Below are positions 11,393 to 13,485 of a DNA stretch of 64,000 nucleotides, piece after piece; position 1 is the first letter of the stretch, and each line of letters starts with the position of its first letter. The position numbers and the translations under genes were made by a program. The stretch comes from Acidobacteriota bacterium. Lineage in GTDB: Bacteria > Acidobacteriota > UBA4820. The stretch is taken from NCBI GenBank assembly GCA_029559035.1, contig JAKQCT010000001.1, forward strand, positions 1-64,000, in the 5' to 3' direction. The notes under the pieces are model-generated. The model made no database searches, was not told the DNA's origin, and saw only the letters and a program-made list of their open reading frames with translations.

Positions 11393-11700
11393 GCGCAGGG
11401 AAAGATGCTTCCGCATCTTTTCTCGGTTTCGCTAAATGCTCTTCAATGAGCAAGCTCCTTCCGAGCCTTTAGCTCACCTCTTTCAGCTTCGAGCTTCCCC
11501 CTGCGCTTGATTGATAAATAAATGAACATCCACCCCCCACACCGTACCATGCGCCGACGGCGATGGAGCGAACTGCTTTGTCAGCCTGCGGGGTCCAAGG
11601 CCCTCCAAGTACATCCCAGTACATGTCGGGCTTGTCCCCCTTGCCTTCCTCGCATGCCGCCCATCGGCGTCGGGACGCGGCAAGTAATGCTTGCCCATCC
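11393..11700 (+). repeat. Left inverted structured repeat of the 2.1 kb island
   Basis: GCGCAGGG 11393; hairpin 11401-11420; CCCTGCGC 11499-11506; ACATCCACCCCC about 11526; AGTACATCCCAGTACA 11608-11623; GCCCATCGGCGTCGGGACG 11659-11677. Confidence 0.75.
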
Positions 11701-11766
11701 TTTTTTCAACCCTTCTGCAAATTGAAAACGAACGACCTCGAGAGAGGATTTGCCGATCGTGACATT

Positions 11767-13155
11767 CTATTGTGTCCCTTGAATTCGCGGAGGGGGCTCG
11801 GCCATGATCTTATGATGCAACTCTCTTGTACTTTCATAGCTGTCATATTCAATTTCTTTTAGGATTCTTTTCGATAAGGCGCCATTGTTGTAAAGAATTT
11901 CCACAATATCGCACCGATGTATCCCGCAAGTCAGCTTTTCGTACAAGACCTCTAGCGGCTTTCTGCATTCAAGCGTCTTGTTTCTTTTATAAATGGCAAT
12001 GTAAGCCCACACCATAGAATGAAGGACATCATCTTTTTTGTGCCTTTCCGCGATTTTGGTCAGTAGCTTCCAGTCTCCCTTCATGTAGTTCGATACCAGG
12101 AGATAAAGATAATCGGCAGGATTGTTCGTTATTTTAAGTTTTCTGATTGCAAACTCTCTGATGTCATCGGCCTTAAAATATTGCAATGCTTCACAGGCAA
12201 ACTCAACAAGGCGGTTTTTTCGGCTGTACCGGCTTTTCGCGAGCTCGAGAATCTGATGGTAATCGAAAGGAAACTTCCTTCTCGAGAATATCCTTAGATA
12301 CCTTTCTTGTTTAATTGGGTCAGTTTCTTTTAAAAAATCTTGTGCCAGCCTTTTAATATCTCTTTCCTTCAGTTGCTTGACCCCAAAAAGCACGAAATGG
12401 CGCGCTGTGTCCCTATCAATATTGTTCTTGACGATTTGATAGGTGTATCTCGGCTTTTGGGGAATCGTCAGTATTGTCTTCTTATCTGCCAATATTTTAG
12501 ACCAGTACTTTTTAATATAAGGATTGCTTTTTGATGCTTTCTTCAACTCGTCATAAACCTTAAGCTCCGGATGCTTATCTTGAAAATCATCGACAAGATA
12601 GCTATCGCCCTGATCGTCTTCCGGATTATTCATGAGGGCTTTGCCCCTTTCAACTGCAATTCGTTTTAAGCCCGCAAAACCATCAATACTGAGGATCGCA
12701 TCATCACCTACCCATTCAGCATATTCAATCGTCTTCTTATGAAATCTCGCATATATGGCTTTACTGGCTTTTTGATTGCCTTCCTTGGCAAAAATTGCCG
12801 CAAGCTCAAATAGCTGGTTTAAAGTCCAACAATTATCCCGTTCTTTGGCAAGCGCATTTAAAACGCTTGCCACAATTTTATCTTTTTTACCACTCAGGTT
12901 TATCAACTGAGAGAGATAATGCGCGCGGTCTCCTTCCGCTTGTCCATCGTATGCGAAATTAAATGTGGCCGCTTTTATTATGTCCCTCGAAAAATCCACT
13001 TTCGGGTTGTCCTTTAAGATGAAATAAGCCTTCCCGGTTCCGCACCTTATCGATTTTCTGAACTCTTTTTTAGTATTCAACATCTCTTCGCTGCCGCGAT
13101 ATGGGATTTTTCTACAATCCTCTTTTCCCATTCTTTTAATGCCTCCCGTGATCAT
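11767..13155 (-). CDS. Orphan protein of unknown function (helical; possible alpha-solenoid)
   Basis: Long AT-rich ORF (MITGGIKRMGKEDCRK... or a start at 13131 or 13083) unlike its GC-rich neighbours. The ORF-track start at 13434 would run through the right repeat, so an internal start is likelier. Confidence 0.65.
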   Translation of the reverse strand: MITGGIKRMGKEDCRKIPYRGSEEMLNTKKEFRKSIRCGTGKAYFILKDNPKVDFSRDIIKAATFNFAYDGQAEGDRAHYLSQLINLSGKKDKIVASVLNALAKERDNCWTLNQLFELAAIFAKEGNQKASKAIYARFHKKTIEYAEWVGDDAILSIDGFAGLKRIAVERGKALMNNPEDDQGDSYLVDDFQDKHPELKVYDELKKASKSNPYIKKYWSKILADKKTILTIPQKPRYTYQIVKNNIDRDTARHFVLFGVKQLKERDIKRLAQDFLKETDPIKQERYLRIFSRRKFPFDYHQILELAKSRYSRKNRLVEFACEALQYFKADDIREFAIRKLKITNNPADYLYLLVSNYMKGDWKLLTKIAERHKKDDVLHSMVWAYIAIYKRNKTLECRKPLEVLYEKLTCGIHRCDIVEILYNNGALSKRILKEIEYDSYESTRELHHKIMAEPPPRIQGTQ

Positions 13156-13184
13156 TATATCCCCATTTGCAGGACGTTCGATAT

Positions 13185-13485
13185 TCGAGCCCGGCGGCGA
13201 AGCCGCTGACGTCCCGACGCCGATGGGCCAGATACTAGGAAAACGAGACGGCCGCACCGGAAGTGTACTGTGATGTACTCTGAGGATGCGGATGTCGAAG
13301 TTTGACAACGTAGATGGTCCGTTGTCGTCGGCGTGTGGTTGGTTAGGTGGGGGTGGATGTATCTTTATTGTCTGGCGCAGGGAAAGCCGAAGGCTGAAAT
13401 AGAACGAAATGAAGTCTCGTGGGTGCTCGCACACAAAGAGACTTTATAGAAGTTCGCAAAAGACGCGTAGCGTCTTGCCCTGCGC
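13185..13485 (-). repeat. Right inverted structured repeat of the 2.1 kb island
   Basis: Same motifs in inverse order: CGTCCCGACGCCGATGGGC 13210-13228; TGTACTGTGATGTACT 13264-13279; GGGGGTGGATGT 13349-13360; GCGCAGGG 13375-13382; hairpin 13460-13476; CCCTGCGC 13478-13485. Confidence 0.75.

What the first reader, a model, noticed from the sequence alone, without database searches (positions are those of the whole stretch)
11393..13485. 2.1 kb island with diverged but motif-conserved inverted structured repeats around an orphan ORF
SEEN: both flanks carry, in inverted order, GCGCAGGG plus a hairpin, CCCTGCGC, ACATCCACCCCC, AGTACATC(C/A)CAGTACA and GCCCATCGGCGTCGGGACG. Distances from ACATCCACCCCC to the latter two are 82 and 133 bp on the left and 81 and 132 bp on the right. 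Sequence between the blocks has diverged. INFERENCE: recent terminal inverted repeats should be near-identical throughout, so retention of only motifs and spacing suggests selection on function: recombinase/transposase recognition, paired structured RNAs, or a protein-bound bracket. The cargo is AT-rich against GC-rich neighbours and sits 2 bp after the LpxH-like stop codon, between convergent genes.
Basis: partly seen in the sequence, partly recalled or inferred. Interest (0 to 1): 0.8.

Follow-up and report, generated by a model that had tools for sequence, protein, structure and literature searches.

The report
Hairpin-bracketed foreign gene in an acidobacterium
Two diverged copies of a scattered, folded DNA element enclose one horizontally acquired gene, and the same bacterium has at least fourteen such sites, which suggests an undescribed way of parking single foreign genes behind core genes.

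Summary
The two flanks are copies of a dispersed ~325-bp element that recurs, diverged, at about 15 other places in this Acidobacteriota genome. They belong to two subfamilies (A left, B right; 68% identical). Of four bracketed islands recognised, three have both elements whole and one has a truncated partner; all pair an A with a B, inverted. The element's ~125-nt core is a long hairpin: in 84 copies from this order and distant families of the phylum, 27 of 30 pairs covary. G·T and A·C mismatches are equally rare in it, unlike in tRNA, so the constraint points to folded DNA rather than RNA. It is not in Rfam. All 17 elements tested in this genome are polar: the outer end abuts core genes (12 of 17 lie 2-101 nt after a stop codon) and the inner end faces AT-rich DNA. 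The cargo is not an orphan: a HEAT-like helical protein with over 120 homologues, in only 4 of 396 genomes of the phylum. Relatives carry the core inside miniature elements with terminal inverted repeats. Most likely the arms are folded-DNA ends of a non-autonomous single-gene cassette. The enzyme is unknown; integron attC membership was tested and not met.

The parts
11393..11722 (+). left arm: subfamily A copy of the dispersed structured element (outer end 11393, inner end ~11722)
   Evidence: 86% to C43:9557-9883, 84% to C3:14146-14441; fold z -5.6
11393..11506 (+). domain I of left arm: stem GCGCAGGG/CCCTGCGC closing smaller hairpins
   Evidence: alignments A3/A4, consensus fold
11526..11545 (+). 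C-rich hinge ACATCCACCCCCC
   Evidence: conserved in all arms and in relatives
11551..11677 (+). domain II of left arm: ~125-nt long covarying hairpin (core)
   Evidence: covariance model R1, 129.9 bits; covariation
11679..11695 (+). domain III hairpin GGCAAGTAATGCTTGCC, followed by a tail to TGCAAATT (inner end)
   Evidence: covaries with GCGGCTTCGCCGC-type hairpins of B arms
11767..13131 (-). passenger gene, 454 aa HEAT-like all-helical protein (conserved family start may be 13083)
   Evidence: 127 homologues; AlphaFold2 pLDDT 91, alpha-solenoid, no PDB match at E<=0.001; 41% GC
13165..13485 (-). right arm: subfamily B copy (outer end 13485, inner end ~13165)
   Evidence: 92-93% to C7:11442-11771, 82% to C48; fold z -5.8 as RNA, -5.0 as DNA
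13375..13485 (-). domain I of right arm
   Evidence: alignments A3/A4
13210..13334 (-). domain II (core hairpin) of right arm
   Evidence: R1 133.5 bits
10638..11390 (+). flanking core gene, LpxH-like metallophosphatase; stop codon 2 bp before left arm
   Evidence: Pfam Metallophos 5.9e-8
13523..14188 (-). flanking core gene, SpoU/TrmH-like rRNA methylase; stop 37 bp before right arm
   Evidence: Pfam SpoU_methylase 6.7e-30

Best explanation
The island is a non-autonomous mobile single-gene cassette. Its two ends are inverted copies, one of each subfamily, of a structured DNA element. The cassette inserted into the gap between lpxH and trmH, each outer end coming to lie just behind a core gene's stop codon, and brought in one foreign gene. 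Each arm works as folded single-stranded DNA (or a cruciform): a recombinase or transposase supplied in trans recognises the long hairpin with its fixed internal loops and joins DNA near the outer end. Shown: dispersed copies, inverted A/B pairing, DNA-type covariation, strict polarity, foreign cargo. Inferred: movement as a unit, the enzyme, the strand used. Because stem sequence is free but structure and loops are fixed, the arms keep motifs and spacing while the sequence between them drifts.
For: Dispersed family: about 15 further places in this genome; three complete two-armed islands (window, C43, C3) and one with a truncated partner (C74), each A plus B in the same inverted arrangement. 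Polarity: in 17 of 17 arms (14 independent loci) the 400 bp beyond the inner end is lower in GC than beyond the outer end (means 0.414 vs 0.568, Wilcoxon p 3e-4); 18 copies of the related element in G004 show no such bias (0.671 vs 0.663, p 0.57); 12 of 17 outer ends lie 2-101 nt after a same-strand stop codon. Passengers are unrelated low-GC genes: HEAT-like, ankyrin, CarboxypepD_reg, DUF6794, lipoprotein- and membrane-like. Core hairpin: 84 sequences, 93.5% of cells paired, 419 double against 29 single-sided changes, 0 of 500 shuffles as high. DNA-level constraint: G·T 46, A·C 40 (22 vs 31 in the best-supported pairs), against 13 vs 1 in tRNAs. The core is mobile in relatives: terminal inverted repeats with 9-10-bp target duplications in G004/G006/G007, other terminal repeats in G003, G043, G257, G273. 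Cargo acquired: 4 of 396 phylum genomes, no other in the order.
Against: No target duplication was found around any arm or two-armed island in this genome. No recombinase lies in the islands, and the window's cargo does not look like one. At least half of the arms have no recognisable partner even with filters off. No exact empty site was found, and no same-genus genome is held. Homologues of the cargo elsewhere are not flanked by this hairpin. In relatives the element shows no cargo polarity, so cassette behaviour is so far a property of this one genome. Polarity could in part reflect AT-rich intergenic DNA lying next to any element that sits behind genes.
Confidence: 0.55

Rival explanations
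1. The arms are independent MITE/REP-type insertions that settle behind stop codons in a fixed orientation; between convergent genes this automatically gives an inverted pair. The foreign gene entered the same permissive gap separately, so the island is two repeats plus a bystander gene.
For: In relatives the core sits in solo miniature elements with terminal inverted repeats and target duplications and no cargo. 12 of 17 outer ends here follow a stop codon in sense orientation; close placement to flanking ORF ends is also described for REPs (PMC3733652). Arms closest to each other lie at unrelated loci.
Against: A bystander does not explain why all 17 inner ends, and none of the outer ends, face the lower-GC side, nor why the four pairs are all A+B. 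Only C39 lacks an adjacent clearly low-GC stretch.
Confidence: 0.27
2. The arms are a pair of structured RNAs (or 3' UTR elements) that regulate or protect the neighbouring transcripts.
For: Very stable multi-domain fold (z about -5.6 to -5.8) and strong covariation; position directly behind stop codons.
Against: The mismatch spectrum is that of DNA, not RNA: G·T equals A·C. Terminator-like sites are no more frequent than in shuffles. No Rfam match. Copies vary in number and place between genomes.
Confidence: 0.1
3. The islands are integron gene cassettes integrated at dispersed sites, the core hairpin being a long attC.
For: True integron integrases (TIGR02249 above cut-off) occur in 8 of 16 genomes checked, 7 from this order plus G261. 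Passengers look like cassette genes, and 7 of 38 cargo homologues begin with GTTACCTG(C/A)C-type ends complementary to their 3' ends, an integron-like cassette signature.
Against: Stretches around the integrase genes do not have the core as their array repeat (G004 has one solo copy about 6 kb away). No RYYYAAC/GTTRRRY boxes bound the core. No cassette-end complementarity at G000 passengers. This genome has no integrase above cut-off.
Confidence: 0.05

Closest known systems
Integron gene cassettes with attC sites
   Same: single foreign genes; long imperfect DNA hairpins whose stems vary while loops are kept
   Different: dispersed not arrayed, hairpins at both ends and inverted, no R boxes, not the repeat of the integrase loci tested, no integrase above cut-off in this genome
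REP/REPIN elements and RAYT (Y1) transposases
   Same: dispersed palindromes behind genes, inverted pairs, no target duplication here, Y1/RAYT genes in this genome, one next to a partial copy (C78) and one preceded by a copy in G007
   Different: REPs are 20-40 bp (PMC3733652), these are ~325 bp with a 125-nt core; no GTAG end; no Y1 gene found in copy-rich G003 (88% complete); most RAYT loci have no copy
[quoted passage not shown]
   Same: in relatives the core lies in short elements with terminal inverted repeats and, in G004/G006/G007, 9-10-bp target duplications
   Different: the core itself is conserved across elements with unrelated termini; in this genome single arms have no terminal repeats and no duplications
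Composite transposons
   Same: two inverted terminal elements enclose a passenger
   Different: arms encode no transposase and are two subfamilies, 68% identical

Membership tests
Integron attC / cassette | R'' RYYYAAC and R' GTTRRRY boxes bounding the hairpin | tested here: not met
   no such conserved boxes in 24 aligned cores and their flanks; strict attC scan of passenger 3' flanks negative, though that scan also missed the attC-like repeats of L066
Integron attC / cassette | same repeat found in the array of a resident integron integrase | tested here: not met
   R1 over 12 integrase or integrase-like loci: no array copies
REP/REPIN with RAYT | 20-40 bp palindrome with GTAG-type end | tested here: not met
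   core ~125 nt, no GTAG end
REP/REPIN with RAYT | RAYT gene flanked by the repeats | tested here: inconclusive
   Y1 genes in 10 of 12 genomes, copies beside 2 of 30 loci scanned
MITE | terminal inverted repeats | tested here: not met
   not met for single arms in this genome; met in relatives
MITE | target-site duplication | tested here: not met
   none in this genome; 9-10 bp in G004/G006/G007
Known structured RNA family | match to an Rfam model | tested here: not met
   no match at E<=1 in the island; in relatives' loci only miRNA models below gathering score, away from the core
Structured RNA | G·U enriched over A·C among stem mismatches | tested here: not met
   46 vs 40; tRNA control 13 vs 1
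Composite mobile unit | movement of arms and passenger together | not testable with these tools
   no same-genus genome held; only approximate empty loci in G005/G011

The most novel reading that the evidence does not exclude
A gene-cassette system independent of integrons: single foreign genes bracketed by two kinds of long folded-ssDNA site (A and B) and inserted with fixed polarity behind the stop codons of core genes by an unidentified recombinase.
Probability: 0.25. Interest if true: 0.85.

Novelty: new variant of a known kind. Interest (0 to 1): 0.6.

Why it matters
If the arms and passengers move together, this would be a second hairpin-based route, besides integrons, by which bacteria gather single genes of outside origin, and it would place them at sites that spare the neighbouring transcripts. 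The core is a compact, strongly covarying DNA structure found in 25 of 396 sampled genomes of the phylum and missing from Rfam. Its mismatch spectrum also offers a simple general test to tell DNA hairpins from RNA hairpins in comparative data.

Tried and rejected
Integron attC: rejected after testing integrase loci, R boxes and cassette ends. Structured RNA: disfavoured by G·T = A·C and by Rfam. RAYT as mover: only two suggestive neighbourhoods, and no Y1 gene found in copy-rich G003. Target duplications around G000 arms: none. Autonomous partner for the G004 terminal repeats: paired repeats lie 126-754 bp apart, no transposase-sized element; the G273 terminal repeats gave no identifiable transposase either. 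A second arm at C28 turned out to be an unrelated inverted-repeat element inside the passenger. Phage and plasmid origin: an exact core pattern is absent from viral contigs and the right arm has no match in PLSDB.

Full report
Observation. The two flanks align continuously at 68% identity, far beyond shuffles (score 102 against a maximum of 29 in 1000). The gap after the lpxH stop, the convergent neighbours and the AT-rich cargo (41% against 55.5% GC) are right.

What the arms are. Searching the genome (2.86 Mb, 99 contigs, 95% complete) with the island gives 37 matches. After merging, these are dispersed copies of one ~325-bp element: about fifteen further places besides the two in the window, some cut by contig ends. 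The left arm belongs to subfamily A (closest to C43 and C3, 86% and 84%), the right arm to subfamily B (92-93% to C7). Two-armed islands with other cargo occur at C43:8533-9883 and C3:~13292-14441, and with a truncated second arm at C74; each pairs one A with one B, outer ends outward. The other arms stand alone.

Structure. Each arm has three domains: a stem GCGCAGGG/CCCTGCGC closing smaller hairpins, a C-rich hinge followed by a ~125-nt long hairpin, and a small hairpin with a tail ending TGCAAATT. For the core, 24 chosen sequences give 19 of 30 pairs with compensatory changes. A covariance model built from them finds the core in 25 of 396 genomes of the phylum, in most genomes of the own order and in distant families. 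Over 84 copies, 27 of 30 pairs covary, 419 cells changed on both sides against 29 on one side, and sliding the partner by one column collapses the signal. The 84-row alignment was fitted to the model, which favours the structure, but the independent MAFFT alignment of 24 rows gives the same picture.

DNA or RNA. RNA helices tolerate G·U but not A·C; DNA hairpins favour neither. Here G·T and A·C are equally rare, 46 and 40 (22 and 31 in the best pairs; 1 and 2 in domains I and III), while tRNA stems from the same held loci show 13 and 1 (Fisher p 0.007). The constraint therefore appears to act on folded DNA. Copying of one hairpin arm onto the other during replication could also produce such changes, but it should erase the conserved mismatched loops (GTCAG / CTTCCT), which persist.

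Polarity and cargo. In this genome every arm tested has higher-GC core sequence outside and lower-GC sequence inside (17 of 17 arms, 14 independent loci; means 0.568 and 0.414). Related elements in G004 show no such asymmetry. Twelve outer ends lie 2-101 nt after a same-strand stop codon, behind genes that look like polA, serS, dinG, asnS, gltX and lpxH by their sequence (my reading of the ORFs). Passengers are unrelated small genes: ankyrin, CarboxypepD_reg, DUF6794, lipoprotein-like, membrane proteins. The window's passenger is a 454-aa helical-repeat protein (pLDDT 91; no PDB fold match at E<=0.001), homologous to proteins of Bacteroidota, Spirochaetes, Planctomycetes and others but found in only 4 of 396 genomes of its own phylum and in no other of its order. 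It was therefore probably acquired from outside.

Relatives. The same core sits inside miniature elements with quite different ends: ~390 bp with ATGCCTGTCCAAAA repeats and 9-10-bp target duplications in G004/G006/G007; ~480 bp with AACCCAAATTTGTCA ends in G003; 176-178 bp with TTAACCCGG-type ends in G257 and G273 and, with a variant end, G043; ~180 bp without clear ends in G261. So the core is mobile or rides on mobile elements. In G005 and G011 the lpxH gene faces another conserved gene of this locus with no island.

Mechanism. The most economical reading is a cassette whose folded-DNA ends are recognised by an enzyme in trans. Joint movement is inferred from pairing and polarity, not seen. 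Candidates for the enzyme are Y1/RAYT proteins (three in this genome, one beside a partial copy) or a tyrosine recombinase. Integron integrases occur in many relatives but their loci do not use this hairpin and this genome has none above cut-off.

Taxonomy. Lon protease homologues at 83% identity are named Acidobacteriota and Thermoanaerobaculaceae, so the organism is an Acidobacteriota bacterium near Thermoanaerobaculaceae; the genus is not known.

Verdict. A real and unusual feature: a hairpin-bracketed foreign gene, one of a family of such sites. Structure, dispersion, polarity and foreign cargo are shown; movement and enzyme are open.

Noticed in passing
L066 4521-4700, L061, L062, L065, L071, L079 (cargo homologues in Bacteroidota): Homologues of the cargo lie between hairpin direct repeats with GTTACCTG(C/A)C starts complementary to their own 3' ends, an integron-like cassette signature (7 of 38 loci, control 1.5%).
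   Followed up: partly
L045/L192 (C78) and L193 (G007 C65): RAYT-like Y1 transposase genes directly beside copies of the element; the G007 one is bounded by 22-bp perfect inverted repeats AATAGGGACAGCCACCTATTTT that also enclose a full copy of the element.
   Followed up: partly
L047 5585-5865 (C28): A ~280-bp palindromic element with GAGCCTATCCGGAAATA terminal repeats is inserted in the passenger gene next to the C28 arm.
   Followed up: partly
L044 6736-7776 (C74): The passenger of the C74 island appears to be split by a transposase gene pair that looks IS630-like.
   Followed up: no
L257-L268 (G003): In same-family genome G003 several contigs begin or end inside the element, as expected of recent, similar copies.
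   Followed up: no
G004 C44, G005 C123, G007 C11, G008 C283, G009 C160, G012 C504, G261 C9: True integron integrases (450-474 bits) in this acidobacterial order and in G261; the G005 one is followed by a run of small cassette-like genes.
   Followed up: partly
C19, C99b, C39, C88b and the B arm of C3: A B' subfamily carries a ~51-nt extra segment in the core apex, CGCTCGGTACGGAGCCCTCGCTGACTTGAAGCCAAGCAGTTGGCTT, conserved across loci.
   Followed up: no
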